This document shows positions 4,035 to 22,912 of a stretch of 34,125 nucleotides of DNA, in pieces. Numbering within the stretch: the first letter of the stretch is position 1; every line of letters starts with the position of its first letter. Source of the stretch: Candidatus Gastranaerophilales bacterium. GTDB lineage: Bacteria > Cyanobacteriota > Vampirovibrionia > Gastranaerophilales > Gastranaerophilaceae. The stretch covers positions 1 to 34,125 of the forward strand of contig CALUPO010000017.1 in NCBI GenBank assembly GCA_944322675.1, read 5' to 3'. Both the position numbers and the translations under genes were made by a program. Under the pieces are notes generated by a model. It saw only the letters and a program-made list of their open reading frames with translations, ran no database searches and was not told where the DNA came from.

Positions 4035-4058
4035 AAAAGTAAACTTTTGTTAACAAAA
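4035..4058. promoter_or_regulatory. Overlapping palindromes upstream of S24 repressor
   Basis: AAAAGTAAACTTTT (6-bp arms, 4035-4048) overlaps the perfect palindrome TTTTGTTAACAAAA (4045-4058). They lie 31 nt before the repressor start and are suitable as binding sites for an XRE dimer, so autoregulation is the simple reading. No clear -35/-10 pair could be fixed here. Confidence 0.45.
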
Positions 4059-4088
4059 TTATTTATGCGTACACAAAAAGGTATTGAT

Positions 4089-4700
4089 ATGTTAATACAA
4101 GAAGCTATTAAAAAATTAGAACTTTTAACAAAAAAAAATATAACATATGATATACTTGCAGAAGCTTTGGGGATTTCAAAGCAAGCAATAAGTAATAGAA
4201 TTGCAAGAAAAAGTTCTTTAAAGGACTTTGAATATCAGAAAATTAAAAATTTTTTATGCTTAGATAATGATATGCCTAATATAAAGGAGCATTATATTAA
4301 TATAAATTATTATCCTGATGTATTTGGTTCATGTGGTTCGGGTACTTTTGCCTTATCAGAAAACAAAGAAGAAATGACAATATCTCAACAGTTATTGAAT
4401 TCTTATTCCAAATCAAGAATTTATAGTGCAATTAATGCACGTGGTGACAGCATGGAACCATATATTCAAGATAAAGATAAATTAATAGTTGAACACTATG
4501 AAGGTGAGCAAATAGTAGACAACAACGTATACATTTTTAGATTTTATGAAGAATTGTTTATTAAAAGATTAGCTAAAAATTTAGACCAAATTGTTGTAAA
4601 ATCTGATAATTCTATATACCCTATAAGATTTATTGAAAAACAAGAATTTGAACATTTTCAAATTATAGGCAAAATTGTAGGTGTAATTAGAAATTTATAA
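4089..4700 (+). CDS. LexA/CI-like phage repressor with S24 self-cleavage domain
   Basis: A 203-residue protein from ATG 4089, which has AAAAGG upstream; longer starts at 4065 or 4047 are possible. Residues 15-42 form a helix-turn-helix (ILAEALGISKQAISNRIARK). Residues 80-203 are a LexA/UmuD-type S24 peptidase domain: candidate cleavage dipeptide Cys82-Gly83 (UmuD also uses Cys-Gly), catalytic Ser121 in GDSMEP and Lys159 in FIKRL. It should hold the prophage silent and be inactivated through RecA after DNA damage. It is followed 30 nt later by the nuclease gene, which may share its transcript. Confidence 0.88.
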   Translation: MLIQEAIKKLELLTKKNITYDILAEALGISKQAISNRIARKSSLKDFEYQKIKNFLCLDNDMPNIKEHYININYYPDVFGSCGSGTFALSENKEEMTISQQLLNSYSKSRIYSAINARGDSMEPYIQDKDKLIVEHYEGEQIVDNNVYIFRFYEELFIKRLAKNLDQIVVKSDNSIYPIRFIEKQEFEHFQIIGKIVGVIRNL

Positions 4701-4730
4701 TTGATATTTTTAATCAAAGGAGAAAAAACA

Positions 4731-5813
4731 ATGGAATTTGTAGAAAAAATTAAGCAATTGCAAGAACGAGCAAATGGACTTATTGATAATTTACAAACTG
4801 AAGAAGCAACAAAAAATGCTTTAATTATGCCTTTTTTGAATGCTTTAGGATATGATGTTTTTAATCCTTTAGAAGTTGTGCCTGAATATATAGCGGACTG
4901 TCGGCTAAAAAAAGATGAAAAAGTTGACTATGCAATAATGAAAGATAATAAACCGATTATTTTATTGGAATGCAAGAAAGTTGAAAATGAAAAACTGGAT
5001 GTTAAACAACATGCAGGACAATTGTTTAAATATTTTACTGCGAGTAAAGCAAAATTTATTATTTTAACTAATGGAATTGTGTATAAATTCTTTTCGGACA
5101 TTGAAGAGCCAAATATTTTGGACAAAGAGCCTTTCTTTACTTTTAATCTTTTGGCTTTTAAAGAAAATCATATTGAAACACTTTCTGAATTTTGTAAAGA
5201 AAATTTTGATTTAGAAAAGGCATATTTAAATGCAGGTAATTTAAAATATATCAGACAATTTGAAGAAGTTTTAGAACAAGAATATCGTAATCCATCTGAT
5301 GATTTTGTAAGATATTTACTCGACAAGTCAAACATATATGATGGTGTAAAAACTGCAAAAGTTATAGAAAAACATAGAAAAACAACAATAGAAGCTTTTA
5401 ATCTTTTTATGTCAAAAATTATGAAAACATCATTAGATTTTAACTTAACATCAAAAGTTGAAGAAATAGATAAAAATACAGATAAAAATACTGTAGTTAC
5501 AACACTTGAAGAACTTGAGGGTTATGCAATTATAAAAGCAATATTAGCTGAAAATTTTGATATAAATAGAATTGCCTATAGAGATAATTTAAGCTATTTT
5601 AACATATTACTTGATGACAATATTTTAAAAACTATTTGTCGTTTGTATTTAAATAAATCAAATAAATATATTGCTTTCTTAGTTACAAAAGAAGGCGAAA
5701 AACGTTCTACAGAAGAAAAAATATTAATAAATTCGATTACCGATATTTTTAATTTCAAAGATAGAATTATTGATAGAGTTAATGAACTAGAAACAAATTA
5801 TGCTAAAAAATAA
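4731..5813 (+). CDS. Stand-alone HsdR N-terminal-type (PD-(D/E)XK) nuclease-like protein
   Basis: 360 residues from ATG 4731, with AAAGGAG before it. Residues 1-165 resemble the N-terminal nuclease domain of type I restriction HsdR subunits (HSDR_N): EEATKNALIMPFLNALGYDV, then the catalytic pattern D(Y)AI...ILLECKK (KVDYAIM and LLECKKVEN around residues 66-86), then FKYFTASKAKFIILTNG. There is no helicase part and no HsdM or HsdS nearby. Such short proteins are frequent in prophages, and a defence role is often proposed but not established. It lies between the repressor and a terminator, so it may be expressed in the lysogen. Confidence 0.75.
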   Translation: MEFVEKIKQLQERANGLIDNLQTEEATKNALIMPFLNALGYDVFNPLEVVPEYIADCRLKKDEKVDYAIMKDNKPIILLECKKVENEKLDVKQHAGQLFKYFTASKAKFIILTNGIVYKFFSDIEEPNILDKEPFFTFNLLAFKENHIETLSEFCKENFDLEKAYLNAGNLKYIRQFEEVLEQEYRNPSDDFVRYLLDKSNIYDGVKTAKVIEKHRKTTIEAFNLFMSKIMKTSLDFNLTSKVEEIDKNTDKNTVVTTLEELEGYAIIKAILAENFDINRIAYRDNLSYFNILLDDNILKTICRLYLNKSNKYIAFLVTKEGEKRSTEEKILINSITDIFNFKDRIIDRVNELETNYAKK

Positions 5814-5952: not shown

Positions 5953-6684
5953 GTGCTTGAATTAAAAAATAAAATAAATCTATTTTTACATAGTATATTT
6001 TTTGAAAAATTTATAATATTTTTAATTTTGATAAATTTAATTGTTTTTGTGTTACAAACAGATAGCTTTATTTGCAAATTCATAGGTAAATATCTAAACG
6101 TTATAGAATACATTTCAATGATTATATTCTCAGTAGAGTATATTTTGCGAGTTGTTGCATTAAAAAAATTTAAAGATATATTTTCAATATATATGATTAT
6201 CGACTTATTAGCTATTTTACCTTTTTACCTGTCATTTATACCAATTAATACAGTATTTTTACGTTTATTGCGTTTAATGCGATTGTTTAGAATTGCAAAA
6301 ATTACAAGATATGTAAATGCTATCAGTAATATAAAACAAGCATTTGTTACACGAAAAAATGAGTTAATCATAACATCTGTTATATTTTTAATTGCTGTTT
6401 TTCTTTCATCAACATTTATATATTTTGCAGAACATAAAACCGGCAACTTAGCCTTTAGAAGTATACCCAGTTCTTTTTGGTGGGCGATTGTCACAATTAC
6501 AACTGTTGGATATGGTGATGCTTATCCTATAACTTTTTTAGGAAAATTTATTGCAAGTTTTACAGCTATTTTTGGTGTTGGTTTACACGGATTAGTTATA
6601 GGAGTTATTTCAAGTGCTTTAATAGATGTTGTTAATATTCAAATAAAAGATAGTAAAACATATAAGTTAAAGGAGAAAAAATGA
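5953..6684 (+). CDS. Six-helix voltage-gated K+ channel-like protein
   Basis: A 243-residue inner-membrane protein. Four helices form a voltage-sensor-like unit (about 18-36, 50-68, 78-96, 101-118); S4 carries Arg at 104, 107, 110 and 113, then Lys116 and Arg119. A pore unit follows, with S5 (137-158), pore helix (173-183), selectivity filter TVGYGD (184-189) and S6 (198-225). This is the layout of KvAP-like voltage-gated potassium channels. The start is GTG with only weak upstream AGG. Its stop overlaps the next gene by 4 nt. An ion channel is unusual prophage cargo; it could affect membrane potential in the lysogen or during infection. Confidence 0.85.
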   Translation: MLELKNKINLFLHSIFFEKFIIFLILINLIVFVLQTDSFICKFIGKYLNVIEYISMIIFSVEYILRVVALKKFKDIFSIYMIIDLLAILPFYLSFIPINTVFLRLLRLMRLFRIAKITRYVNAISNIKQAFVTRKNELIITSVIFLIAVFLSSTFIYFAEHKTGNLAFRSIPSSFWWAIVTITTVGYGDAYPITFLGKFIASFTAIFGVGLHGLVIGVISSALIDVVNIQIKDSKTYKLKEKK

Positions 6685-6896
6685 AAAAAGTTTTTTTGAT
6701 ATTTTGTTTTCTATTTTTTATAGTATTTGATTTAAATGTTGCAAATGCTAAAATAGTTGTATTTAATACAAAAACATTAAAGTATCATAATGTTTATTGT
6801 AAATATGCTCAAAAATGCACAGTTAATTGCATTAAACTTGAGCAAGAAAAAGCTATTAAAAGAGGCGGAAAAGCTTGCAAAGTTTGTGGCGGATAA
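6681..6896 (+). CDS. Secreted Cys-rich small protein coupled to the channel
   Basis: 71 residues. Residues 1-23 form a Sec signal peptide with cleavage expected after ANA. The mature 48 residues hold KYHNVYC, five cysteines (40, 46, 50, 66, 69), His36 and the end GGKACKVCGG. That pattern resembles the small metal-binding domain found at the ends of some secreted nucleases (KYH-x-C ... GxxPCxxC). AAGGAG precedes the ATG, which overlaps the channel stop, so the two proteins are made together. The function is unknown; it may bind metal in the periplasm or act with the channel. Confidence 0.7.
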   Translation: MKKVFLIFCFLFFIVFDLNVANAKIVVFNTKTLKYHNVYCKYAQKCTVNCIKLEQEKAIKRGGKACKVCGG

Positions 6897-6978: not shown

Positions 6979-7007
6979 TTGACATAAATCAAATATAATG
7001 CTATAAT
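6979..7007 (+). promoter_or_regulatory. Promoter of RelE-type toxin-antitoxin operon (leaderless)
   Basis: TTGACA (6979-6984), a 17-nt spacer and TATAAT (7002-7007): both boxes are perfect. The ATG at 7015 follows after 7 nt, so the message should have almost no 5' leader. Confidence 0.85.
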
Positions 7008-7014: not shown

Positions 7015-7341
7015 ATGAGCAAACAATTTATAGCAAAATACACACCGGAAGCAGAACAAGAATTAAGAAATCTTGATAAGCAAGATATAAAAAGGGTGTT
7101 TCGTACTGTAGCTATATTTGAGCAATTAGGAAAAGAGTCCGGATTTACAAGACCATTAAATAAACAAGGTCTATTTGAAATGAAATGTGATAAGATACGT
7201 ATTTATTTTATGTATCACCAAAATAATATAATAATAATTGGTCTTGTCGTTCTAAAGAAAACACAAAAAGCACCTGAAAGATACAAAATTCAAGCTATGA
7301 CTAATATCGAAAAATATATAAGGAGTGATATTAATGAATAA
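7015..7341 (+). CDS. RelE/ParE-family toxin
   Basis: A 108-residue basic protein of the RelE/ParE/HigB fold: FIAKYTPEAEQELRNLDKQD, then RPLNKQGLFEMKCDKIRIYFMYHQNN, then IIIIGLVVLKKTQKAPERYKI. RelE-type members cleave mRNA at the ribosome; the sequence does not settle whether this one is an mRNase or a gyrase poison. It overlaps the antitoxin gene by 8 nt and has a consensus promoter with a leaderless start. It probably stabilises the prophage or acts in defence. Confidence 0.85.
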   Translation: MSKQFIAKYTPEAEQELRNLDKQDIKRVFRTVAIFEQLGKESGFTRPLNKQGLFEMKCDKIRIYFMYHQNNIIIIGLVVLKKTQKAPERYKIQAMTNIEKYIRSDINE

Positions 7342-7585
7342 TTTTAAAACAAATGATGATTTAATAAAGGAATTATTATCTCTTGATGAACAAAAAGAGT
7401 TACAAGAAGAAATTGAAAAAGAAGTAAAATCTATTCGTGGTGGTGCACGTATAGGAGCAGGTCGTAAAAAAAAAGATAGCGACAATATATTGCAATTTCA
7501 AGTTAGAGTTTCAAAACGTGAAAAAGAGTTTTTAAAATATGCACGGGCTCACAATTTAAACTATGATGATTTGATGCAAGGCTAG
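7334..7585 (+). CDS. Antitoxin partner with C-terminal RHH-like segment
   Basis: 83 residues from ATG 7334 with AAGGAG upstream, overlapping the toxin gene by 8 nt. An acidic N-terminal helical part (residues 8-33) could wrap the toxin. The basic patch RGGARIGAGRKKK (35-47) and the strand-helix segment NILQFQVRVSKREKEFLKYA follow and look like a DNA-binding ribbon-helix-helix. The order is toxin first, antitoxin second, as in HigBA. Confidence 0.75.
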   Translation: MNNFKTNDDLIKELLSLDEQKELQEEIEKEVKSIRGGARIGAGRKKKDSDNILQFQVRVSKREKEFLKYARAHNLNYDDLMQG

Positions 7586-9597: not shown

Positions 9598-11265
9598 GTG
9601 AATTATATAGAAGAATACAATAACAAAATACAAAGTGGAGAAATAATAACAAGTAAAAAAGTAAAATTGACATACAAAGCCTTAATTGAAGATTTAAACG
9701 ACCCCCAATCGAAATATGAATTTAGCGAACGCAAAGCCCAACACGCAATATTTTTTATAGAACATTTTTGCAAACATTCCAAAGGGAAATGGGCGGATAA
9801 ACCAGTATTATTGGAGCTATGGCAAAAGGCATATATAAGTTCATTATTTGGAGTTGTAAAGAAGGAAAATGGCAAACGTCGATTTAGAGAAACATTGTTG
9901 ATAGTTGGTAAAAAGAATGGTAAATCATTACTGGCTTCAGCGATAAGCTTATATATGCTAATAGCAGATGGTGAAGGTGGTGCAGAGTGTTATAGTGTAG
10001 CGACGAAGCGAGAACAAGCCAAAATTATTTTTACCGAAGCTGAACGAATGGTTAAAAAAAGTCCATTGTTGCGAAAATTTGTAAAATGCAGAGTAAATTT
10101 ACTAAGTTTTGAAGCTACAAATAGTGTTTTTAGACCTCTTTCAAGTGATAGCAATACAGAAGACGGTTTAAATATATCTTGTGCGGATTGCGACGAAATC
10201 CACGCCTGGCAGACACAAGAGCTTTATAAAATAGTGGCTGATGGTGTTTCAGCACGAGAAGAACCATTGATATTGTTAACAACAACCGCAGGGTTTATTC
10301 GTGAAGGTTTGTATGACGATAAATATGAAGAAGCTGAAAAAGTTTTAAATGGATATTTCGACAAGGATGGTTATAAAGATGATGCTTTTTTTCCCGTAAT
10401 ATATGAACTTGATAGACGTGACGAGTGGCAAGATGAAAAATGTTGGATAAAAGCCAACCCTAACTTGAATATATCTAAAAGTATTGAATATTTGCGTCGT
10501 AATGTCGAAATAGCAAAAGAATTACCAATAAATTTAAAAAATGTATTAACAAAAGAATTTAACATACGAGAAACGTCAAGTGAGGTTTGGTTAACATTTG
10601 AAGAAATAGATAATACCGCAACTTTTGATATAAGCCAATTAAAGCCACGTTATGCATTTGGCGGAGTGGATTTATCAAAAACAACAGACTTAACAAGTGC
10701 TTGTTTAATGTTTATGATGCCAGAGGATAAAACAATATATGTTCAATCTATGTTTTGGCTGCCTTCAGAATTGTTTGAAAAACGTATAAAAGATGACAAG
10801 ATGAAATATGAGATATGGTATGAACGTGGTTTGTTACGTAAAAGCAATGGAAATAAAGTTGATTATGATGATGTTATAGACTGGTTTTGTGAAATGCAAC
10901 GGGATTATGGTGTTTATTTATATCAAAACTGTTATGACTCCTGGAGTTCAACAGCATTTATAAAATCAATGGATGATACATTTGGTAAAATATCAAGACC
11001 GGTTATTCAAGGTAAAAAAACATTGTCATTGCCGATGCATCAATTGGGAGAAGAATTAAAAAGTAAAAATGTAAATTATAACAACAACCCGATATTGAAA
11101 TGGAATATGACAAATGTAAGAGCCGATATAGACAAAAATGGCAATATACAACCTGCAAAAACAATGAATCCCACAAGAAGAATAGACGGATTTGCAGCAA
11201 TGCTGAATGCTTATGTTGGTTTAATGGATGAAAAAAGTGACTATATAAGGTTAATAAGCAGATGA
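9598..11265 (+). CDS. terL: Terminase large subunit
   Basis: A 555-residue packaging motor of the Terminase_1 family. The ATPase domain has a Walker A-like GKKNGKS (104-110), Walker B ending in CDE (198-200) and coupling motif LLTTTA (227-231). The RNase-H-like nuclease has acidic residues Asp358 (GGVDLS), Asp447 (CYDSWS) and Asp530 (RRIDGF). The start is GTG at 9598; no ATG is better placed. Its end overlaps the portal start by 4 nt. Confidence 0.95.
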   Translation: MNYIEEYNNKIQSGEIITSKKVKLTYKALIEDLNDPQSKYEFSERKAQHAIFFIEHFCKHSKGKWADKPVLLELWQKAYISSLFGVVKKENGKRRFRETLLIVGKKNGKSLLASAISLYMLIADGEGGAECYSVATKREQAKIIFTEAERMVKKSPLLRKFVKCRVNLLSFEATNSVFRPLSSDSNTEDGLNISCADCDEIHAWQTQELYKIVADGVSAREEPLILLTTTAGFIREGLYDDKYEEAEKVLNGYFDKDGYKDDAFFPVIYELDRRDEWQDEKCWIKANPNLNISKSIEYLRRNVEIAKELPINLKNVLTKEFNIRETSSEVWLTFEEIDNTATFDISQLKPRYAFGGVDLSKTTDLTSACLMFMMPEDKTIYVQSMFWLPSELFEKRIKDDKMKYEIWYERGLLRKSNGNKVDYDDVIDWFCEMQRDYGVYLYQNCYDSWSSTAFIKSMDDTFGKISRPVIQGKKTLSLPMHQLGEELKSKNVNYNNNPILKWNMTNVRADIDKNGNIQPAKTMNPTRRIDGFAAMLNAYVGLMDEKSDYIRLISR

Positions 11266-12509
11266 TAGGGACTAAAATAAAAAGTTTTTTTAAAAATATA
11301 TTTAATAAAACAACAAAAATACATCAAGGTTTCACGACATTAAAAATGTTAAATTCTTGGAGTCCTAAATTTTTTAATTATAACCATAAAGAATACAATA
11401 ATGTTGTTTATAGAGCTTGCATAGATAGGATATCAAGCCAAATGGCAAAATTAACACCAAATGTTGATTTAAATGGAATAAAATCAGATATTTTATATTA
11501 TTCAAATTTAGAATATTTGTTGAAGAATAAACCGAATGAATATATGAACAAATATGATTTTTTTTACAAACTGACCTCAATGTTGTTGGATAAAAATAAT
11601 GTATTCGTGTACAAAAGGGTTGAAGACAATAAAATAAGTGGTTTATATCCAATAGATTATTCAGAAATTGAATTTATGGAATATGAAGGTGAGATATATG
11701 CAAAATTCAGTTTTAAAAATTCAAGTTTCAATGTTTATATTCCATATGACGAGTTAATACATTTAAGACGTCATTACAACGACAATGATTTATTTGGAAG
11801 TTCACAGCAAGAATTATTAACCCCAATATTTGAAGTGTTAAGTGCAGTCGATAGCGGAATGATAAATGCAGTCAATGCAAGCTCACAATTAAGAGGTTTA
11901 ATAAAATATTCAGGCAATTTAAACCCGGATGATTTAAAGCGATTTAAAGAGCAATTTGTTGAAGATTATATGGGATTAAACGGAAGCGGCATTGGAACAT
12001 TGGACAGCAAAGCAGATTTTATTCCAATAAATCTAACCCCATACACAATAAACGCAGAACAACAAAAAACCGTGCTTGAATATTTTTCAATGCATTTTGG
12101 AGTTTCAGACCGAATATTACAAGGTCTGGCAAACGAAGAGGAATATAACGCATTTTATGAGTTAACCATAGAACCTATGTTGGTTCAATTAAGTGCAGAA
12201 TTTACAAATAAAATTTTTAGCAAAATTGAAATAATGAATGGGTGCAAAATAACATTAACAGCAAATAAATTACTTTTTGCGAACAATGCAACAAAAACAA
12301 CAATAGCGACACAAATGACACAAATAGGAGTGTTTAGTTTAAATGAAGTGCGTGAAATTTATGGTTATGGACCAATTAAAGATGGGGATAGACATATAAT
12401 AAGTTTAAATTATGTAGATTTAAAAAACGCAAACAAATATCAAATAGGTGAAAATAAAGAGGAGTTAAATAATGAAAATAAAACCGGAAATACAAAGTCG
12501 TTGTATTGA
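11262..12509 (+). CDS. Portal protein (HK97 family)
   Basis: A 415-residue portal protein that forms the dodecameric ring at the head vertex. It shows family features: NVVYRACIDRIS near 46-57, LLDKNNVFVYK near 107-117, and the C-terminal LNEVREIYGYGPIKDGD block (about 365-381). It overlaps the terminase stop by 4 nt, and its 3' end overlaps the protease gene by 38 nt, a compact head-gene order typical of this class. Confidence 0.93.
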   Translation: MIGTKIKSFFKNIFNKTTKIHQGFTTLKMLNSWSPKFFNYNHKEYNNVVYRACIDRISSQMAKLTPNVDLNGIKSDILYYSNLEYLLKNKPNEYMNKYDFFYKLTSMLLDKNNVFVYKRVEDNKISGLYPIDYSEIEFMEYEGEIYAKFSFKNSSFNVYIPYDELIHLRRHYNDNDLFGSSQQELLTPIFEVLSAVDSGMINAVNASSQLRGLIKYSGNLNPDDLKRFKEQFVEDYMGLNGSGIGTLDSKADFIPINLTPYTINAEQQKTVLEYFSMHFGVSDRILQGLANEEEYNAFYELTIEPMLVQLSAEFTNKIFSKIEIMNGCKITLTANKLLFANNATKTTIATQMTQIGVFSLNEVREIYGYGPIKDGDRHIISLNYVDLKNANKYQIGENKEELNNENKTGNTKSLY

Positions 12510-13065
12510 ATTACGAAACCAGACATCAAATGAATCTGACAATCAAATGCGAATAAGTGGTGTTGCCGTTGTATTTGAAAGTCCAACGGTATTATATGAA
12601 TATAACGGTGTAAAATATAAAGAAATAATAGACAGAAAAGCATTAAACAATGCAGATTTTTCAAAATGTTGTTTAAAATACAATCATACAGACATAGTAC
12701 CGGTATTGGCAAGGACAAGAAACGGAAGCCTAAAAACAAGTATAAAAGATCATGGATTAGAATTTGAAGCTCAGTTGTTTAACACAACAGCAGGAAAGGA
12801 TGTTTATACATTGATAAAAGAGGGTGGACTTGACAAATGTTCTTTTGCTTTCACAACAAAACGCTCAGAATATGATGTAAAAACCCACACGAGAAAAATA
12901 CTTGAGATAGACAAAGTGTTTGATATTTCTATAGTTGATAATCCTGCATATGATGACACAAGCGTTGAAGCAAGAAGTTTTTTTGAACTTCAGAATCAAA
13001 AAGAAAAGCAAGCGTTGGAAAATGTTGTGCGTAAACGTAAATTACTCCTTATCGCAACATATTAA
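12472..13065 (+). CDS. Prohead maturation protease (HK97 family)
   Basis: A 197-residue serine protease that removes the capsid scaffold domain. KYNHTDIVPVLART (residues about 69-82) carries the catalytic-type His, and LDKCSFAFTTKRSEYD (about 120-135) the Ser. The IDKVFDISIVDNPAYDDT block (about 145-162) is also diagnostic. GAGGAG precedes the ATG. It lies between portal and capsid genes, as in HK97. Confidence 0.93.
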   Translation: MKIKPEIQSRCIELRNQTSNESDNQMRISGVAVVFESPTVLYEYNGVKYKEIIDRKALNNADFSKCCLKYNHTDIVPVLARTRNGSLKTSIKDHGLEFEAQLFNTTAGKDVYTLIKEGGLDKCSFAFTTKRSEYDVKTHTRKILEIDKVFDISIVDNPAYDDTSVEARSFFELQNQKEKQALENVVRKRKLLLIATY

Positions 13066-13129
13066 CCAATAATTAATTACAAAAAAGTAGTATTAAGAGA
13101 TTAATAACAAAAGAAAGGAAAACAAAAAA

Positions 13130-14269
13130 ATGGAAAAAAGGTTATTAGAAATCAAAGCACGTAAATCACAATTAAGAGGTATTGCAAATGATTTAAGCTC
13201 GGAGCAAATTGATGCGGCATTAGAAGAGCTTAAAGACTTAGACAAGGAAGAAAAAGATCTTGAAAAACGTTCACAAATATGTTCCTTGCTATCAGATGGT
13301 CAGATAAACGGTACAAAATATGAGAAACCGACCGATAAAGTTTTGGAAAATATAACCAAACCGGATTCAAAAGAATATAGAAATGCATATTTAAAAAAAT
13401 TAATGGGTCAAGACTTAAATGAAATTGAAAAAAGAGCAATGACAAGTGCAACAAATTCAGTTGGTGCAGTAATCCCAACTCAAACAATAAACAAAATAAT
13501 TGAAAAGCTAAAACAAGAAAGTGTAATATTGCCACTTGTCACACGTCTTAATATCCCATCAAATGTAATTATCCCGATAGAGGGCACAACAAATGATGTA
13601 GCCTGGGTTTCAGAAGGCGGCACAAATGAAAAGGACGATACAATCGGTAAAATTGAACTCGGTTCAAGACAATTGATTAAAACAATAGAAATAACAGCAC
13701 AAGTTGAAAAGATGAGTATAGATGCATTTGAAGATTTTATAACAGCGGAACTTGTAAAAAAAGCAAAAGCAGCTATAGACAATGCAATTATTAACGGCAC
13801 AGGAACAAACAATACTCCAAATGGAATTTTAAAAGCATTAACAGCTTTAAAAACAGGAGTTTCAACAGGTTATGAATACAACGATATAATGAAAATATTG
13901 GCAAGTGTACCGGCAGGATATAAACAAGGTGCAATTTTTGTTATGAGTACAAAAACATTATATGAACAAATAGCCATAATAAAAGATGATATGGGACATC
14001 CTATATTTAAATTAGAGACAGACGAACGTTTTGAAGGTCGTTTGTGTGGATATCCCATTGTTGTTTATGACAATTTGGCAGATGGAAAAGTGTTATTTGG
14101 CAATTTTGAATATTATTATTTTAACTTTGTTGAACAATTTCAAATCGCAAAAGATACATCTATCGGATTTAAAAGTGGAAAAACTTGTTATCGAGTTTTG
14201 GCATTGGCTGATGGCAGCGTTGCATTGGCAGAAGCATTTGCGGTTATGGAATTGAATCAAACAGAATAA
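13130..14269 (+). CDS. Major capsid protein (HK97 fold)
   Basis: A 379-residue protein. Residues 1-about 75 form a charged coiled-coil delta (scaffold) domain (KARKSQLRGI..., EELKDLDKEEKDLEKR) that the upstream protease should remove. The shell domain follows: VGAVIPTQTINKIIEKLK, EGTTNDVAWVSEGG, the NGTGTNNTPNGIL loop and the GYPIVVYDNLADGKVLFGNF strand region. AGAAAGGA precedes the ATG. A strong terminator follows the gene, which would set capsid expression apart from that of the tail. Confidence 0.95.
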   Translation: MEKRLLEIKARKSQLRGIANDLSSEQIDAALEELKDLDKEEKDLEKRSQICSLLSDGQINGTKYEKPTDKVLENITKPDSKEYRNAYLKKLMGQDLNEIEKRAMTSATNSVGAVIPTQTINKIIEKLKQESVILPLVTRLNIPSNVIIPIEGTTNDVAWVSEGGTNEKDDTIGKIELGSRQLIKTIEITAQVEKMSIDAFEDFITAELVKKAKAAIDNAIINGTGTNNTPNGILKALTALKTGVSTGYEYNDIMKILASVPAGYKQGAIFVMSTKTLYEQIAIIKDDMGHPIFKLETDERFEGRLCGYPIVVYDNLADGKVLFGNFEYYYFNFVEQFQIAKDTSIGFKSGKTCYRVLALADGSVALAEAFAVMELNQTE

Positions 14270-14296
14270 CATACATATCTTGACTCTATACTTAAT

Positions 14297-14335
14297 GGAT
14301 AGGTTAAAAAATACATTTTAACTTATCCTTTTTTT
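14297..14335 (+). terminator. Strong intrinsic terminator after capsid gene
   Basis: A 13-bp stem (14297-14309 with 14316-14328, one G-U pair) with a short A/T loop is followed by seven T. This should end or attenuate the head transcript, so the tail operon needs read-through or a separate promoter, which I could not identify in 14336-14371. Confidence 0.85.
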
Positions 14336-14371
14336 AAATAGGACAATGAATTAAGAAGAAAGAAAAAATAA

Positions 14372-14659
14372 ATGGAATTGACACTGGATAACATTAAATC
14401 ATATTTAAGAATAACGCATAATGTGGATGACTCTTATCTGACAAGCTTAATACAGTTGGCAAAGCATTTTATCAAAGAACAAACAGGAGTTGAATATATA
14501 GAAGGTGATGAAGTTTATTGTCAAGCAATAATGCTTATGGTTGGTTTTTATTATGACAACCGTCAAGCAATAAGTGACAAATCAATGGTTAATGTTCCTT
14601 TTTCGCTGGATTGCATGATAAAACATATTGGCATAAGAGGAGAGTTTAAAGTTGAATAG
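14372..14659 (+). CDS. Head-tail connector (gp6-like)
   Basis: A 95-residue helical protein of the phage connector 1 type: LDNIKSYLRITHNVDDSYL, LIQLAKHFIKEQTG and AIMLMVGFYYDNR follow the family pattern. It extends the portal ring as the first adaptor. It overlaps the next gene by 8 nt. Confidence 0.85.
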   Translation: MELTLDNIKSYLRITHNVDDSYLTSLIQLAKHFIKEQTGVEYIEGDEVYCQAIMLMVGFYYDNRQAISDKSMVNVPFSLDCMIKHIGIRGEFKVE

Positions 14660-14990
14660 AGGTGAATATAGGCATTATATTGAAATATGGGAAAAATCGA
14701 CAATGGAAACCACAAACGAGCTTGGAGAGTGTGATACTGAATATATATATAAAAAAAGTGTATTTGCCAAAATAGAAACAAGAGTCGGGAGCTTGTTGAC
14801 AGGTCGGGCTGCGGATACTATTTTATCAACGGTAACACATAAAATTACTTATCCATACAATGAATATCCACAAATAAAAAGCGATGCAAATATAATAAAA
14901 TATCGAAACAAAATTTTTGATGTCAATTATGCATTAAATGAAAATTTTGAAGATATTGAACAACAAGTGTTTGTGACAGAAAGGTGTTAA
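14652..14990 (+). CDS. Head closure / head-tail joining protein
   Basis: A 112-residue beta-rich protein resembling the Phage_H_T_join family (SPP1 gp16-like): EYRHYIEIWEKS, YIYKKSVFAKIE and the ...FDVNYALNENFE end. It starts at TTG 14652 inside the preceding gene; an AGGAGAG lies about 10 nt upstream and no in-frame ATG is near. It plugs the connector until DNA ejection. Confidence 0.8.
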   Translation: MNRGEYRHYIEIWEKSTMETTNELGECDTEYIYKKSVFAKIETRVGSLLTGRAADTILSTVTHKITYPYNEYPQIKSDANIIKYRNKIFDVNYALNENFEDIEQQVFVTERC

Positions 14991-14993
14991 TTT

Positions 14994-15467
14994 ATGGGTT
15001 TGCAAGAAGATTTGGACTTTTCAATAACATTAAGCGATATGAAATTAAGCGAATTTGCACAAAATATGCTAAGAAAAGCAACGGTGCTTTATCCTGAGCA
15101 TTTGAAAGATTTTATAATAGAAAATGCAAATGAACTCAATTTACGTGCTAAAAACTACGCAAAGCAAGAGTATAAGAAAAAAACAGGGCTTTACTTTAAA
15201 AAATTCAAGGTATCAAAGGCATACGTTGGTGATGGTCGATTTTTTATCAAAGTTTATAACAGCTCACCTCATGCACATCTGTTGGAAAAGGGACACAGAA
15301 AAGTGCCTCGTGGCAAAAAAGGCAAAAGCAACAAAGGCAGTAATGAAATTGGTTTTAAACGTGGCAGATACCCGCTTGCAAGAGGAACAAGAAATTTTAG
15401 ACCCATATATTATAAAAAAATAGAAAAATTTATAGATGAATATTTTATTAAAGGGATAATAAAATGA
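14994..15467 (+). CDS. HK97 gp10-like tail completion protein
   Basis: A 157-residue protein. ENANELNLRAKNYAKQEYKK and the SSPHAHLLEKGHRKVPRGKK segment (about 90-108), followed by a basic loop, are typical of the HK97 gp10 family of tail-completion proteins. It begins 3 nt after the joining protein gene, and its end overlaps the next start by 4 nt. Confidence 0.85.
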   Translation: MGLQEDLDFSITLSDMKLSEFAQNMLRKATVLYPEHLKDFIIENANELNLRAKNYAKQEYKKKTGLYFKKFKVSKAYVGDGRFFIKVYNSSPHAHLLEKGHRKVPRGKKGKSNKGSNEIGFKRGRYPLARGTRNFRPIYYKKIEKFIDEYFIKGIIK

Positions 15468-15997
15468 TAACAGCGGCGAATATTTATAAAGCCATAAAAA
15501 TAAGACTTGAGCGTTTTTTTAGTGATATAAAATTGCAAATAAAAGATATAAAAACCATAAACCCGCCTTGTGTTTATATAGAACTTGCAAACAGCAGCAG
15601 AAAAGAAATAGCAAACGAAACATTTGAAGCAGATTATGGTTTTAATATTGTTTATTTTTCAAAAGATGAAACATTAAAAGACTTAATCCAAAAGCAAAAC
15701 ATAATAAATAAGACTTTTAAAAACCCATTAAAAGTAGTTTATTATTCAAGCTTTAATGAAGAATTAAGCACTTTTGTTAAACACCTTGACATAACGAGTT
15801 TGAGTTTTGAAATGGATGAAATAAATTATATTTTAACCTGTAGTTTAAAATTCAACTTTATAGAGCCTCAAGAAATTTATACAAACAATGAAAAATTAGA
15901 AGAAAACAATAACCCATACGAAGATGAAGCTTTATTAAATAAAGATAATATGACACAAATAGAAAGTTATAAATATTCTCCATTGTATAGACACTGA
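15464..15997 (+). CDS. Tail terminator-like protein (DUF6838-type)
   Basis: A 177-residue protein. MITAANIYKAIKIRLERFF, then PPCVYIELANSSRKEI and YGFNIVYFSKD fit the DUF6838/tail-terminator group found before the sheath gene in PBSX-like clusters. The last 30 residues are polar and look extended. It would cap the finished tail. It is followed by a 314-nt gap full of repeats. Confidence 0.75.
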   Translation: MITAANIYKAIKIRLERFFSDIKLQIKDIKTINPPCVYIELANSSRKEIANETFEADYGFNIVYFSKDETLKDLIQKQNIINKTFKNPLKVVYYSSFNEELSTFVKHLDITSLSFEMDEINYILTCSLKFNFIEPQEIYTNNEKLEENNNPYEDEALLNKDNMTQIESYKYSPLYRH

Positions 15998-16311
15998 AAC
16001 ACACAAAAAAACACCTAGTTTCGCCCCAACAAACGGTAAAAACTAATAAAAATAAGCAGTTTTAAAAGGGGTCGCAAGGGTCAAATTTTTGGTAGGGCGG
16101 AGTCGAGCGTATGCGAACGAGCCCGTAACAAAAAGCAATCCGCTGGAGTGTAGGTCTGAAAGACCGAAACGGAATGCAAGGATTGCACTAAGCCAAATAA
16201 TTTGATACAAACGAACTGCAACCATACCTAGTTTCGCCCCAACAAACGGTAAGAAAAATAAAAAAATAAGAAAATATTAATCTAATAAAAAACAGAAAGG
16301 AGAAACCAAAA
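15998..16311. repeat. Inserted element between identical 27-bp direct repeats
   Basis: Two perfect 27-bp copies (16013-16039 and 16226-16252; core ACCTAGTTTCGCCCCAAC) flank about 186 nt of GC-rich sequence without an ORF. The insert has the shared block AGCAGTTTTAAAAGGGGT, a hairpin GGTCT-GAA-AGACC (16160-16172) and an outer stem GCAATCC/GGATTGC (16135-16141 with 16179-16185). The arrangement suggests an inserted or recombined repeat element upstream of the sheath gene. Confidence 0.8.
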
Positions 16312-17373
16312 ATGACAACAATAGAATTAAACGATTTAAAAACTGATATAATTGTAATTTTCAAACAAATAGTAGCAAATAAGATAACCGCAGGTGACAA
16401 AGGTCGTGCATTATTTTTATACAAAAATGAAAATTTAGAAACAAATCATCAAATAACGACTTATAAATCGGCGATACTAAGTTTGGAAGATGAAAAATTA
16501 GAAGGTTATATAAAGCAATTATTCAAGGGCGGATGCAAGAAGGTCATAGCTTGTGAATATAAAACAGAATTGGCAGATATTAAAGCATCAATAGATGAGA
16601 TTTTGCCCGAATTTGATTGGATAATGTCAACGGATGCTGATATACAGACAGACATAAAGACTTATGCCATTGAAAATAACAAATTTGCAATGGTATATAA
16701 TATAAAAGCAGACTCAATAAAGATATGTTCAATTTCAAACCCAAAAGCGACAATAAAAAATGATGATGGTTCGACAAAAGATATAACAGGATTGGAGTTA
16801 ATCCCAATAGTAGGTGGTGTAGCTTGTGGATGTCCGTATAATATGTCAATTTCATACAAGGTTTTTGATGAGCTTTCGACGGTTCAACAACCGGATGAAT
16901 ATAACTATGGTCAGTTGACTTTATATCCGGAAGAAGAAGGCATACGATTGGCGAATGCTTGCAACACGTTGCAAACATTAAACAGTAATTATACTGAAGA
17001 TATGAAATCATTGGCAATAGCGGAAGGTATGGCAAGAGTTGAAACTGATATTGTAAAAGCTTTCAGAACAGGCTACAAAGGCAAATATAAAAACAGTTAT
17101 GACAATCAATGTTTGTTTTATGCAGCAATAAAACATGGATATTTTAAGGAACTGGAAGCACTTGGTATACTAGACCCAAATTACAACAATAATGTTTATA
17201 CAGACATAGAAGCACAAAGGAACGCTTGGCTTGCAGCAGGCAAGGCAGAAGCAGAAGACTGGACAGATGAAGAGGTTTGTAAATATACATATAAAAATAT
17301 GCTTTATGTAACAATGGATGTAAAATTTTTAGATGCCATTGAAGGTATGAAAATGACAGTTGAAATGTTTTAA
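16312..17373 (+). CDS. Tail sheath protein
   Basis: A 353-residue protein of the Phage_sheath_1 type (XkdK-like, short form). The ends carry the family signals: KITAGDKGRALFLYKNE near the N-terminus, and GYKGKYKNSYDNQCLFYAAI with RNAWLAAGKAEAEDWTDEE near the C-terminus. It surrounds the tail tube and contracts on infection, so the phage is a myovirus. AGAAAGGAG precedes the ATG. Confidence 0.92.
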   Translation: MTTIELNDLKTDIIVIFKQIVANKITAGDKGRALFLYKNENLETNHQITTYKSAILSLEDEKLEGYIKQLFKGGCKKVIACEYKTELADIKASIDEILPEFDWIMSTDADIQTDIKTYAIENNKFAMVYNIKADSIKICSISNPKATIKNDDGSTKDITGLELIPIVGGVACGCPYNMSISYKVFDELSTVQQPDEYNYGQLTLYPEEEGIRLANACNTLQTLNSNYTEDMKSLAIAEGMARVETDIVKAFRTGYKGKYKNSYDNQCLFYAAIKHGYFKELEALGILDPNYNNNVYTDIEAQRNAWLAAGKAEAEDWTDEEVCKYTYKNMLYVTMDVKFLDAIEGMKMTVEMF

Positions 17374-17417
17374 AGGTTAGAAATAAGTTTTATAAAAAAA
17401 AGGAAGGAATATAAAAA

Positions 17418-17834
17418 ATGAAAACAAAGATAACAAATGTATGGACCGGTTCAAGTGGTGAATTGTGGTTGAACAATACAGAGCGATTATTAAGGGTGCA
17501 AAAATTCAGCTTCAAGCAAACAAACAAATATGAACAAATAGACGACACAGACAATTTCTCAACTCAAGAGAGACTTGTAGGAGTGGAATTGTCAGGAGAA
17601 ATAACCAAATTTAAAGTTGATTTTGGCATAAATGACATATTTGAAAAGAACAAAAATAAACAACAAGTTGACTTAACTTTAACAGGTAAAATAGAAAACC
17701 CTGACACCGGAGAAACAAAACGCATATCAATAACAGGTGTAACCTTACAGGATTTTGAACTATTTGGTTTTGAAAAGGGAAAAGTCAACCAGGACACAAT
17801 TACATTTAATGCAACTGATTATAGTTACTTGTAA
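17418..17834 (+). CDS. Tail tube protein (XkdM-like)
   Basis: A 138-residue beta-rich protein matching the XkdM/DUF2001 tube family: WTGSSGELWLNNTERLLRVQ, ERLVGVELSGEITKFKVDFG and RISITGVTLQDFELFGFEKG. It polymerises into the inner tube under the sheath. AAAGGAAGG lies upstream, and it follows the sheath gene by 44 nt. Confidence 0.92.
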   Translation: MKTKITNVWTGSSGELWLNNTERLLRVQKFSFKQTNKYEQIDDTDNFSTQERLVGVELSGEITKFKVDFGINDIFEKNKNKQQVDLTLTGKIENPDTGETKRISITGVTLQDFELFGFEKGKVNQDTITFNATDYSYL

Positions 17835-18290
17835 ATACACAAAAAACCACACCTAATGGCATCCCAACAAGTGCAAATAAATATATTATTTTGCTTTTTA
17901 ATCCAATGAATTTAATGAACAGTTCCCTAGGGTTGCAAAAGTATGAAAATAAAAGGCTAGGAATGAATGCAATAATGGCAACCCATATGCAGCTGCGAAC
18001 AATTATCACTTGACGAAACATTGATAAGCAGCCGTCTGTTTGAGTACGAAGTACGAGTTAAGGCTGCATAGGTTGAGTCTAGTGAGAATGTGAGCAGCAA
18101 ATCGGGTTGCGGTTTTGTGCAACTTTGTCCACACAAAGTTGCCCTGTCCGGAGGACTTAAATATATAATTTTAACGGTATAAAAATATATTTATGTTTAT
18201 TGTGGGGAATAACTGCTTTAAAAAAAAATACAAAAAACACACCTAATGTCGCCCCAACCAACGATAAAATTTAATATTACAAACAAAAGA
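17835..18290. repeat. GC-rich repeat element between degenerate TTTCGCCCC-type repeats
   Basis: A gap of about 450 nt bordered by a degenerate copy (17850-17876) and a better copy (18241-18267) of the dispersed late-operon repeat. Inside are a perfect 10-bp hairpin (18119-18128 with 18133-18142, loop CCAC), a GTAC-GAA-GTAC hairpin (18042-18052) and GTCC-GGA-GGAC (18146-18156). About 22 of 24 bases around ACAAAG-TGCCC-GTCCGGAGGAC match the host-flank repeats at 33844-33867 (opposite strand). Confidence 0.7.
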
Positions 18291-18314
18291 AAGGACAAAA
18301 GAAAGGACAAAAAA

Positions 18315-18829
18315 ATGGAAAATAAAGAAATATTGACAGCAGAAGCATTACTAAAAAAGAAAGATATAATAAGCGGTATTAATAACACAGAATATTATAG
18401 CAATTTTTTAAACGGAGTTATAAAAATAGACCGCTTGCCCTCTGAACAAGTGTGTGAAATAATGCAGAATGAAGATAAAACATACTTTGAGCGTCAATGC
18501 GAACTTATTTATATGTCTTGTCCTTGTTTTCGGGATGAAAACTTGATAAAAGGGTATGATGCCACAATGCCTTATAATGTTGTTGATGAGATTTTTAAAT
18601 CACATTTAAATGAGCTTGCTGAACTTTGTGAAATAGTGTTGGGGTTATATGGATTTTCGAATGCAGGTGAAGAAATAAAAAAGCAATAGAAAATGATGAT
18701 GATTTTGCACTTATTCATCATTATTTGCAACGTGGGCACAATTTGAAAGATTTGCTCAATCTTGATTATTACGAAAAAGAAATTTATAAAGCAAGTGCAA
18801 TTGTTGAGCTTAAGCGAAAGGAACTATAA
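18315..18829 (+). CDS. Tail assembly chaperone, short and -1 frameshifted long forms
   Basis: Zero frame: ATG 18315 (AGAAAGGA upstream) to TAG 18689, 124 residues, like XkdN-type chaperones placed between tube and tape measure. Just before the stop lies A AAA AAG (18677-18683), the dnaX-type slippery heptamer. An 8-bp stem (AATGATGA 18692-18699 / TCATCATT 18715-18722) follows 8 nt later. Slipping -1 continues 49 more codons (AIENDDDFALIHHYLQRGHN...) to TAA 18827-18829, right before the tape measure start. This is the gpG/gpGT arrangement: the long form binds the tape measure protein while the short form stays in excess. Confidence 0.82.
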
Positions 18830-18831
18830 AA

Positions 18832-20400
18832 ATGGCAGATGACGCAAAAAAATCAATAGAAGTGACATTCAAAATAATGAATAAAAACTTTGGAGCAATA
18901 ACAAAACTTGCCCAAGCTTTTGGTGTGGCAGAAAAAGAAGCTATAAAGATGCAGAAGGGGTTCAACACAGCTTTTAAAGACTTAAAAAAAGAATTTAAAT
19001 CAACCCAACAAGCAGTAAAAGGCTTTATAACCCCTATTGCAGCAGCATCGACTGCAGCTACAGCAAGTTTTGTTGCTTGCGTCAACAAAACTCGAGAATA
19101 TGCCGACCGAGTTGATGATTTTGGAAAAAAAATGGGATTATCTAAAAAAGGATTCCAAGAATGGGATTATATAATAAAACAAAATGGTGGGAATATAGAA
19201 AGTTTGCAAATGGGAATGAAAACCCTTGTAAATCAAACGGCAGGTGTTTTAACAGGAAACAAAAATGCTATAAAAAATTTCAATCAATTAGGAATATCGA
19301 TAAAAGGGTCAAATGGACAATTAAAAAACCAAGAAACATTATTCAAAGAAGTCACCGCAAAACTTCAAAAAATGCCAGACGGTATTAAAAAAGCAAAACT
19401 AGTCAATGATATGTTTGGTCGTTCAGGAAGTGAATTTATGCCATTGTTTAAAGAAAGTGCACAAAGCATTGAATCCTTGTATAAAGAAATGGATAAATTA
19501 GGGATTATAATGACAGATGACCAAATAGATGCCGCGAATACTTGTTCGGATAACATTTACGCACTACAACGTGGTTTTGGTGCTTTGGGACAACAAGTTG
19601 GAAATATTTTTATTCCAAAACTTAACCAATTTATGCAAATTGTTATAAATAAAATGCCTCAGATAAGAGCAAAAGTAATTCCTACAATAGAACAAATAAG
19701 CCAAAATGCAATACCTGTGTTCAAAAGAATTGGTAATACTTTATTATGGTGCATAGAACATATAGAGGAAATAACTCGAGCTATAAAAATTTTTGGTGTG
19801 ACATTTTTAGCGATAAAGGGTATTCAAGCTGCGACAGCAACAATAAAAACAGTCAGCTACTCTTGGCAATTAATGTCTCAATTTGTGAATTTATGTACTC
19901 AAGCATATAAAGCGAATGTCCTTTGGTCTGGTTTGGCCACAGTTGGCACAAAAGCACTTGGTGTTGCCTTAAGAAATTTGGGCTTCATAGCTATTATAAC
20001 CGCAGCTATAACTGCAATAGCTGCACTTGAGAAAAGGTTTCATCTTCTAGAAAAGACAGCAAAAGCAACCTGGAAAACACTTAAAAAAGGAAAAGACTTT
20101 TTTACAAATAAAAATAAAGATGAAAAAGCCGTGTCAACTGCAACCAGCATACCTAAACATGCAACGGGCACAACTTTTGCTCCGGGCGGATTATCACTTG
20201 TGGGTGAAAATGGTCCCGAACTTGTCAATTTAAGACGTGGTTCGACTGTCATTAACAACAAAGAAACACAAAAAATTATAGGCTCAAAAGACATAACAAT
20301 AAATATAAATGTTGCAGGCAACATGATTGGCAACGGTGAGTTTATAAACCAAATCAAGCAAGTCCTGGGCAAGGAGCTAAAAACAGCATTGGCGGTATAA
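18832..20400 (+). CDS. Tail tape measure protein
   Basis: A 522-residue protein, short for this family, implying a fairly short tail. It has a helical N-terminus (about 15-60), alanine-rich hydrophobic segments (about 63-82, 320-335 and 378-395), long amphipathic helices, and the common C-terminal motif GGLSLVGENGPELVNLRRGS (about 454-473). It sets tail length and is bound by the frameshifted chaperone made just upstream. AAAGGA lies before the ATG. Confidence 0.93.
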   Translation: MADDAKKSIEVTFKIMNKNFGAITKLAQAFGVAEKEAIKMQKGFNTAFKDLKKEFKSTQQAVKGFITPIAAASTAATASFVACVNKTREYADRVDDFGKKMGLSKKGFQEWDYIIKQNGGNIESLQMGMKTLVNQTAGVLTGNKNAIKNFNQLGISIKGSNGQLKNQETLFKEVTAKLQKMPDGIKKAKLVNDMFGRSGSEFMPLFKESAQSIESLYKEMDKLGIIMTDDQIDAANTCSDNIYALQRGFGALGQQVGNIFIPKLNQFMQIVINKMPQIRAKVIPTIEQISQNAIPVFKRIGNTLLWCIEHIEEITRAIKIFGVTFLAIKGIQAATATIKTVSYSWQLMSQFVNLCTQAYKANVLWSGLATVGTKALGVALRNLGFIAIITAAITAIAALEKRFHLLEKTAKATWKTLKKGKDFFTNKNKDEKAVSTATSIPKHATGTTFAPGGLSLVGENGPELVNLRRGSTVINNKETQKIIGSKDITININVAGNMIGNGEFINQIKQVLGKELKTALAV

Positions 20401-20427
20401 AGTTAGTTTCGCCCCAACAAATAATAA
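20401..20427 (+). repeat. Late-operon repeat copy (tape measure/baseplate junction)
   Basis: AGTTAGTTTCGCCCCAACAA matches the perfect repeats at 16013 and 16226 through the TTAGTTTCGCCCCAACAA part. It sits directly after the tape measure stop codon and 22 nt before the next ATG, without any inserted element. Confidence 0.8.
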
Positions 20428-20448
20428 AAAAACAAATAGGACATAAAA

Positions 20449-21105
20449 ATGGATATAATATTTGTAAGAGAAAAACAAACAGGACAAAATATTTTAAGTC
20501 AAATAAACAATAATATTATTGACAGAATACAAAAAGCATTCAATGTGACAGACAACGAAACAGAAAGCCTTTTTTTACCAATTGTTCCCAAAGACATTCC
20601 ATTTGCAAAAACAAGCGACACAAGTGGCTATAAAGGCATAAATGAAGCGTTTAACTTGCCTTCGTATCAAAACCTTGAGCAATTTTCTTGGAGTGGTATT
20701 TTTCCTGTATATAAAAACTACAAATCTATACGTATTTTAAGCAATGCCAATGGATACGATTATGTCGAATTTTTGGACGAACGACAAAAAAACAGGCTGC
20801 CTTTAAGACTTATTGCGTTTGACTATAACAAACTAAACGAAACCGCAACAAACATATACCAATCAAACGACTTAAGCTTGAATAATATAACGACATCAGC
20901 AATAAATATTTTGTTTGACGATTTTGTGCTTGTAAGTGAATTTAGATATAGCATAGATACCGCAAAAGATATTATGTACAGCTTGACACTAGACCGCTTT
21001 AACGCAAACATTGTTGATTATTCTATAAACTTGACACAAACATCAATAAACACAGCAAAAAATATAACAACAAGATACGCTTTAAAAACTTTAGGATTAA
21101 TATAA
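20449..21105 (+). CDS. Tail hub/XkdP-position protein
   Basis: A 218-residue protein located where PBSX-like clusters have the XkdP-type tail protein. SWSGIFPVYKNYKSIRILSN and DYVEFLDERQKNRLPLRLIAFD fit the N-terminal domain of such proteins, which bind the tube end. No LysM domain is seen, unlike in longer relatives. It ends 7 nt before the hub gene. Confidence 0.7.
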   Translation: MDIIFVREKQTGQNILSQINNNIIDRIQKAFNVTDNETESLFLPIVPKDIPFAKTSDTSGYKGINEAFNLPSYQNLEQFSWSGIFPVYKNYKSIRILSNANGYDYVEFLDERQKNRLPLRLIAFDYNKLNETATNIYQSNDLSLNNITTSAINILFDDFVLVSEFRYSIDTAKDIMYSLTLDRFNANIVDYSINLTQTSINTAKNITTRYALKTLGLI

Positions 21106-21112
21106 AACAGTT

Positions 21113-22397: not shown

Positions 22398-22403
22398 ACT
22401 TAA

Positions 22404-22432: not shown

Positions 22433-22437
22433 TTAAA

Positions 22438-22911: not shown

Positions 22912-22912
22912 T

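What the first reader, a model, noticed from the sequence alone, without database searches (positions are those of the whole stretch)
5953..6896. Prophage-borne voltage-gated K+ channel coupled to a secreted Cys-rich peptide
A complete six-helix channel (S4 Arg at 104, 107, 110, 113; filter TVGYGD) overlaps by 4 nt a gene for a signal-peptide protein with five cysteines. It lies between a repressor-nuclease unit and toxin-antitoxin genes, where lysogeny-expressed defence or conversion genes are usual. A channel plus a secreted partner could collapse or sense membrane potential on infection, or tune the channel from the periplasm. I know of no described phage system with this pair.
Basis: partly seen in the sequence, partly recalled or inferred. 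Interest (0 to 1): 0.68.

Follow-up and report, generated by a model that had tools for sequence, protein, structure and literature searches.

The report
Prophage potassium channel with defence links
A virus dormant in a gut bacterium carries a nerve-type voltage-gated potassium channel gene next to a small secreted metal-binding-like protein gene, and relatives of this channel turn up repeatedly in the immunity regions of other dormant phages and inside bacterial anti-phage operons, which suggests a role in protecting the cell from infection.

Summary
Window 5953-6684 encodes an intact Kv-type six-helix K+ channel, and 6681-6896 (4-nt overlap, own Shine-Dalgarno) encodes a secreted protein with five mature cysteines. 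The window is a myophage-like prophage contig of a Gastranaerophilales MAG.

The pair recurs in five loci: two prophages and three chromosomal contigs. All five channels fall in one supported clade, but gene order is reversed in three, and the partner is usually solitary (53 stand-alone copies in 191 genomes). So the partner is an optional accessory with an Ada-like zinc-binding fold, not an established channel toxin or subunit.

The stronger signal is the channel itself. Relatives sit in the repressor-integrase slot of many temperate phages, and one shows repressor-nuclease-channel as here. In Gastranaerophilales the channel is the fourth gene in 9 of 9 resolvable Shango operons (0 of 30 in other Cyanobacteriota), though two copies are broken and most are close relatives. 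It also follows 5 of 17 PDC-S37 genes.

Best reading: a lysogenic-conversion, defence-associated K+ channel whose gating or K+ flux helps block infection. Channel and location are shown; antiviral function is inferred. No paper found describes its function.

The parts
5953..6684 (+). Kv-type six-helix potassium channel gene (243 aa, GTG start)
   Evidence: PF00520 2e-27; phrog_7872 7e-43; AF2 model and Kv1.2/Kv2.1 Foldseek hits
6250..6312 (+). S4 voltage-sensor segment of the channel (residues 100-120; R104, R107, R110, R113, then K116 and R119)
   Evidence: positions by script; invariant in alignment A2
6502..6519 (+). selectivity filter TVGYGD (residues 184-189)
   Evidence: sequence, script, invariant or nearly invariant in A2 and A4
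6670..6675 (+). AAGGAG Shine-Dalgarno for the partner, inside the channel's last codons
   Evidence: read directly from the sequence
6681..6896 (+). secreted partner, 71 aa, HxxxC...CxxxC...CxxC, Ada-like zinc-binding-type fold predicted
   Evidence: family alignment A1; AF2 pLDDT 88; four best structural hits all N-Ada
4047..4700 (+). S24-type phage repressor upstream
   Evidence: PF00717 1.1e-18; phrog_4 1.1e-31
4701..5813 (+). HSDR_N / phrog_4225 endonuclease upstream (likely start ATG 4731); the same nuclease family precedes a channel in L156 and replaces the channel cassette in a prophage related to L107 (L277)
   Evidence: PF04313 5.1e-16; phrog_4225 9.7e-108
6979..7007 (+). promoter matching the consensus 12/12, placed to drive the toxin-antitoxin genes downstream, separating them from the channel pair
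   Evidence: pattern scan; consensus match only
7015..7585 (+). Gp49/RelE-like toxin (7015-7341) and overlapping putative antitoxin (7325-7585)
   Evidence: PF05973 4.4e-7 for the toxin; antitoxin assigned by position only
9598..31300 (+). terminase, portal, protease, capsid, tail sheath, tape measure, baseplate and endolysin genes: myophage-like prophage body
   Evidence: PHROGs

Best explanation
A lysogenic-conversion cassette carried by a Gastranaerophilales prophage. Its core is a voltage-gated-type K+ channel from a family that phages and anti-phage operons recurrently recruit. The lysogen would make the channel at a low level and keep it closed at resting potential. When an incoming phage perturbs the membrane, or an upstream sensor fires, the channel would open and move K+ and the membrane potential towards the K+ equilibrium value, stopping infection or sparing the lysogen. 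The small partner would be an optional periplasmic accessory, probably binding zinc through an Ada-like HxxxC/CxxC site. Shown: channel anatomy, prophage location, recurrence of the pair, recurrence in repressor-integrase slots, and the operonic link to Shango and PDC-S37 genes. Inferred: K+ selectivity, voltage gating, expression in the lysogen, antiviral effect, and the role of the partner.
For: Channel identity. Prophage body. Pair in a second prophage between repressor and integrase; pair on chromosomal contigs; all five paired channels in one supported clade (97/92). Phage slot: of 40 channel clusters drawn from the 80 best IMG/VR loci, 22 have a repressor and 16 have both repressor and integrase within 2.5 kb. 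L156 has repressor - metalloprotease - phrog_4225 nuclease - channel - integrase, as here. Annotated phages PLE2 and Dulem virus 33 show the same slot. Defence link: SngA-SngB-SngC-channel with about 10 nt spacing in 8 of 8 resolvable Shango loci of the family and in a ninth from another family of the order, against 0 of 30 in other Cyanobacteriota. Channel directly after 5 of 17 PDC-S37 (DUF4011 helicase-nuclease) genes. Cargo exchange: a nuclease 76% identical to the window's occupies, in prophage L277, the slot that holds a channel cassette in related prophages L107 and L104.
Against: No functional data. Shango works elsewhere as three genes, and two of the Shango-linked channel copies are broken by stops, so the channel is not essential there. 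The Shango-linked channels are close relatives (short branches), so 9 of 9 is far fewer than nine independent events. Linkage to repressor and integrase marks conversion genes in general, not defence genes in particular. The window genome has no Shango. No strong promoter was found for the pair. About half of the family's channels lie in other contexts.
Confidence: 0.5

Rival explanations
1. General host-fitness conversion gene: the channel lets the lysogen handle K+, osmotic or membrane-potential stress in the gut and has nothing to do with phages. The partner is a periplasmic metal-site protein that happens to be co-expressed.
For: Pairs on ordinary chromosomal contigs; the window genome holds no other Ion_trans gene; the partner is widespread and solitary; prokaryotic Kv homologues outside phages are known (NCBIfam K_channel_Meth hit).
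Against: Patchy distribution (25 of 383 genomes) and recurrent placement in Shango/PDC-S37 operons and phage immunity regions fit a mobile, phage-related role better.
Confidence: 0.25
2. Phage life-cycle gene: the channel reports membrane potential or tunes induction or lysis timing for the prophage itself.
For: Sits beside the repressor here and in many phages; a voltage sensor could link membrane collapse to induction.
Against: Found without any phage in Shango and PDC-S37 operons and on chromosomes; exchanged for a nuclease in related prophages, so it is probably dispensable.
Confidence: 0.1
3. The channel and the small secreted protein form a dedicated two-component system in which the partner gates or blocks the channel from the periplasm.
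For: Adjacent, overlapping or nearly so, in five loci of one channel clade, in both gene orders, in two prophages and three chromosomes; partner has a conserved Cys/His core.
Against: Most channels lack it and most partners lack a channel; in L105 the partner has lost its last Cys; no partner near Shango or PDC-S37 channels.
Confidence: 0.15

Closest known systems
Voltage-gated K+ channels (Kv family, Ion_trans PF00520; nearest solved relatives Kv2.1, Kv1.2, Kv4.2)
   Same: Six helices, S4 with Arg at every third position, TVGYGD filter, same predicted fold
   Different: Minimal: no T1 or other cytoplasmic domain; prophage-borne; function untested
'Ion transporter' genes of temperate phages (Lactobacillus phage PLE2, Dulem virus 33, Listeria-type phages) and the KQT-like gene of the Oenococcus sicerae prophage (PMC9867325)
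   Same: Kv-like channel gene in a temperate phage; in PLE2, Dulem virus 33 and the Listeria-type phages it lies between repressor and integrase, the usual conversion slot
   Different: Only about 29-37% identical over the aligned part in the annotated phages; no secreted partner seen there; the window contig shows no integrase (probably truncated at its left end)
Shango anti-phage system (SngABC)
   Same: A homologous channel (about 39% identical) is the fourth gene of Shango operons in Gastranaerophilales
   Different: The window genome has no SngC, and no Sng gene flanks the channel
Lambda RexAB superinfection exclusion
   Same: Prophage-expressed membrane ion-channel defence placed by the repressor (functional analogy; review PMC11436027)
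   Different: RexB is a different membrane protein and the outcome is depolarisation; here the pore is K+-type, and no RexA-like sensor was noticed
Ada N-terminal zinc-binding domain (PF02805)
   Same: Top four structure hits of the partner are N-Ada; HxxxC...CxxC could stand in for Ada's CxxxC...CxxC (own knowledge of Ada)
   Different: Secreted, 71 aa, no DNA-repair context, two extra Cys, weak scores (Z 5.1; Pfam E 0.26 in one member only)

Membership tests
Kv-type voltage-gated K+ channel (Ion_trans, PF00520) | Profile match above the curated cut-off | tested here: met
   96.4 bits against a cut-off of 25
Kv-type voltage-gated K+ channel (Ion_trans, PF00520) | Six transmembrane helices with pore helix | tested here: met
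   AF2 helices S1-S6 plus pore helix, pLDDT 89.9; hydropathy
Kv-type voltage-gated K+ channel (Ion_trans, PF00520) | S4 with regularly spaced Arg | tested here: met
   R104, R107, R110, R113, K116, R119
Kv-type voltage-gated K+ channel (Ion_trans, PF00520) | TVGYGD K+ filter | tested here: met
   residues 184-189
Kv-type voltage-gated K+ channel (Ion_trans, PF00520) | Measured K+ selectivity and voltage gating; tetramer | not testable with these tools
   needs electrophysiology and a structure of the complex
Lysogenic-conversion (moron) gene | Lies in a temperate phage genome beside lysogeny genes | tested here: met
   S24 repressor upstream, full myophage-like gene set
Lysogenic-conversion (moron) gene | Dispensable: absent from, or exchanged in, related phages | tested here: inconclusive
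   Exchange seen in the L107/L277 prophage family, not shown for the window's own phage lineage
Lysogenic-conversion (moron) gene | Expressed in the lysogen and alters the host | not testable with these tools
   no expression data
Shango (SngABC) | SngA, SngB and SngC present with the channel | tested here: not met
   no SngC in the window genome at E 1e-100 and no Sng gene beside the channel; met in relatives
Ada-type zinc-binding domain (PF02805) for the partner | Profile match above cut-off | tested here: not met
   no PF02805 hit for the window protein; 1 of 21 members at E 0.26
Ada-type zinc-binding domain (PF02805) for the partner | Ada-like fold with four metal ligands | tested here: inconclusive
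   best Foldseek/VIA hits are N-Ada but weak (prob 0.82; Z 5.1 with 1.9 A over 48 residues); candidate ligands H36, C40, C66, C69 conserved; metal not tested
RexAB-type exclusion system | RexA sensor plus RexB membrane channel | not tested
   no dedicated search; the channel here matches Ion_trans and no RexA-like neighbour was noticed

The most novel reading that the evidence does not exclude
Kv-type K+ channels are a shared, exchangeable membrane module of phage-immunity systems. They are recruited by temperate phages next to the repressor, by a four-gene Shango variant (SngABC + channel) and by PDC-S37 operons, so bacteria and phages would use a nerve-like voltage-gated channel as an antiviral effector or accessory. 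In one clade it is further paired with a secreted Ada-like zinc-binding protein acting on the periplasmic side.
Probability: 0.35. Interest if true: 0.85.

Novelty: new variant of a known kind. Interest (0 to 1): 0.6.

Why it matters
Membrane-potential effects are a common endpoint of anti-phage defence, but I found no paper in the library showing a genuine voltage-gated K+ channel acting in one. If the link with Shango, PDC-S37 and prophage immunity regions is functional, it gives simple testable systems, and it would explain the many 'ion transporter' genes that sit unexplained between repressor and integrase in temperate phages. It would also suggest one reason why Kv-like channels spread so patchily in bacteria.

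Tried and rejected
Channel alone as a viral-contig query: nothing; the alignment query found many. Known defence match for channel or partner: none in PADLOC (only a chance-level JetA hit to the channel, E 0.028). Partner as a known Pfam/NCBIfam/PHROG family: none; the best PDB sequence hit (lactococcin, E 0.45) judged chance. General rule 'phage channel plus small Cys-rich secreted neighbour': rejected, since among neighbours of 78 viral channels only L114 has a convincing one; L107 carries an unrelated Cys-rich secreted neighbour. Conserved operon of the solitary partner: none apparent among some 20 loci. Rho-independent terminator before the channel: not supported. Circular or terminally redundant window contig: no exact terminal repeat. 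Literature on phage or prophage potassium channels, channel effectors, Shango and DUF4236: only the Oenococcus remark was directly relevant. Two phage-collection records: MT836734 looks like Bacteroidetes chromosomal content, and in MT836653 the partner-like ORF is interrupted by a stop.

Full report
WHAT IS THERE. The window is a complete 34,125-base contig (C17) of a 2.1 Mb MAG. Named relatives of its genes come from Candidatus Gastranaerophilales, Cyanobacteriota-related gut bacteria. The contig carries terminase, portal, head protease, capsid, tail sheath, tape measure, baseplate and endolysin genes, so it is a myophage-like prophage. No tyrosine-type integrase lies on it; the genome's integrase hits are on other contigs, so the left end is probably truncated. 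The right end carries a NUDIX gene that may be host flank.

THE CHANNEL. ORF 5953-6684 is an intact Kv-type channel. PF00520 2e-27; profile match to Kv2.1 4.9e-44; AlphaFold2 pLDDT 89.9 with S1-S6 and pore helix; Foldseek best hits Kv1.2 and Kv2.1. It is the only Ion_trans gene of its genome.

THE PARTNER. ORF 6681-6896 overlaps the channel stop by 4 nt, with AAGGAG at 6670-6675. Aligned with 20 relatives it shows a signal peptide and the invariant core H36, C40, C46, C50, C66, C69. No library names it. Its model (pLDDT 88) has only one coherent set of structural neighbours, the zinc-binding N-terminal domain of Ada (Foldseek prob 0.82; VIA Z 5.1 over 48 residues at 1.9 A). These scores are weak but consistent. 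The same domain occurs inside roughly 600-residue periplasmic-looking proteins with PLD nuclease domains. I read it as a small periplasmic metal-site protein; zinc binding is inferred. In the first family sample 53 stand-alone copies were found (my count of the rows), and the neighbours of some 20 such loci are mostly unrelated to each other.

THE PAIR ELSEWHERE. Channel and partner are adjacent in five loci: the window; G059:C81 and G094:C26, both at contig ends with chromosomal genes on the other side; G229:C176, where the partner has lost its last Cys; and IMG/VR contig L114. In L114 the order is S24 repressor, bPH/SHOCT protein, partner, channel, integrase, so it is a second prophage. In the window and G229 the channel comes first; in the other three the partner comes first. 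In the tree all five paired channels lie in one clade (97/92) of 11 rows, six of them unpaired. The window groups with G059 and L114 with G094. The bootstrap had not fully settled. The simplest reading is an old but loose association with losses and inversions, and at least two passages between phage and chromosome.

THE CHANNEL IN PHAGES. Searching IMG/VR with the channel alignment gave 186 confirmed relatives, of which the best 80 were kept. From these I made 40 clusters. Twenty-two clusters have a repressor within 2.5 kb, and 16 have both repressor and integrase (homology search with sample queries, so a lower bound). PHROG and Pfam scans of neighbours are dominated by repressors, HTH proteins and integrases. 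L156 has repressor - metalloprotease - phrog_4225 nuclease - channel - integrase, the same nuclease-channel order as the window. Lactobacillus phage PLE2 and Dulem virus 33 show the slot in annotated genomes. An Oenococcus sicerae prophage Kv gene has been noted without function (PMC9867325). In Gastranaerophilales prophages of the L107 type, a channel cassette occupies the slot that holds, in the related prophage L277, a nuclease 76% identical to the window's. Nuclease and channel therefore behave as exchangeable cargo, and in the window they stand side by side.

THE CHANNEL IN DEFENCE OPERONS. In 383 genomes of the family, 25 carry a homologue, 28 copies in all. Eight copies follow SngC at about 10 nt, with SngA and SngB also seen wherever the contig or the fetched stretch reaches that far; these are all the Shango loci of the family whose 3' end is resolved (the ninth, G288, is cut at a contig end). 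A further one lies in another family of the order (G578). None of 30 Shango loci read from other Cyanobacteriota has it, nor do three annotated plasmid Shango-like loci examined. Five copies follow, with about 30 nt overlap, a PDC-S37-type DUF4011 helicase-nuclease, which has 17 hits in the family. Two of the Shango-linked channels are broken by stops, and the linked copies are close relatives, so the independent number of events is small.

HOW IT PROBABLY WORKS. Shown: a complete channel of a mobile, patchily distributed family; its placement next to phage immunity genes; operonic linkage to candidate and known anti-phage genes. Inferred: the lysogen makes the channel; infection-linked depolarisation or a partner sensor opens it; K+ flux clamps the membrane at the K+ equilibrium potential, which in a strongly polarised bacterium in K+-rich gut may itself be a large depolarisation, and this halts phage development or protects the lysogen. 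The partner's role is open: tuning from the periplasm is possible, but most channels do without it. I put about 0.85 on 'mobile conversion cargo' and 0.5 on the whole statement including an anti-phage role.

NOVELTY. Phage-borne Kv genes exist in databases but appear functionally undescribed; the library holds no paper that I found tying them to defence (open-access papers only). The four-gene Shango arrangement, the PDC-S37 link and the Ada-like secreted partner are, as far as I could check, undescribed. I file it as a new variant of a known kind, not as a member of Shango: the window lacks Sng genes.

Noticed in passing
L081, L093, L095, L096, L101, L102, L110, L113, L280 (Gastranaerophilales): Shango operons whose SngC gene is followed about 10 nt later by a Kv-type channel gene; 9 of 9 resolvable cases in the order, 0 of 30 in other Cyanobacteriota; channel broken by stops in L101 and L102.
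   Followed up: partly
L078:9723-15901, L079:9988-16146, L106:795-6038, L109:8020-9544, L091:9-2055: PDC-S37-type DUF4011 helicase-nuclease whose 3' end overlaps a Kv-type channel gene by about 30 nt, with a DUF4236 gene upstream where the sequence reaches that far.
   Followed up: partly
L077:8710-10505, L115:3825-5520, L125:2225-4197, L100:372-2104, L107:1268-2509: DUF4236 or DUF4236-like proteins recur next to Kv-type channels in prophages and chromosomes of different hosts; function unknown.
   Followed up: no
L107:1617-2509: Another prophage channel is preceded, with 1 nt overlap, by an unrelated 71-aa Cys-rich secreted peptide (QCVAGRGCCSGHGGVCGC...).
   Followed up: no
L107:21-4155 and L277:2867-7260: Same cargo slot between tape-measure and conserved small genes in related prophages: channel cassette in one, phrog_4225 nuclease (76% identical to the window's) in the other.
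   Followed up: yes
L197:82-1884, L198:2055-3839, L199:2183-4063, L200:1550-3277: Roughly 600-aa proteins with an N-terminal membrane segment and PLD nuclease domains carry an internal copy of the partner's HxxxC...CxxC domain; widespread in the family.
   Followed up: partly
window 6979-7007: A promoter matching the sigma-70 consensus at 12 of 12 positions (with extended TG) just before the toxin-antitoxin genes.
   Followed up: no
window 1333-1734 (minus strand): Early phage gene with a long run of NVNENENE-type repeats encoded by near-tandem codons.
   Followed up: no
window 2852-3394 and 29608-30135: Two related ORF6N antirepressor-like genes at opposite ends of the same prophage; the first hits the PADLOC candidate family PDC-S05 (1.9e-57).
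   Followed up: no
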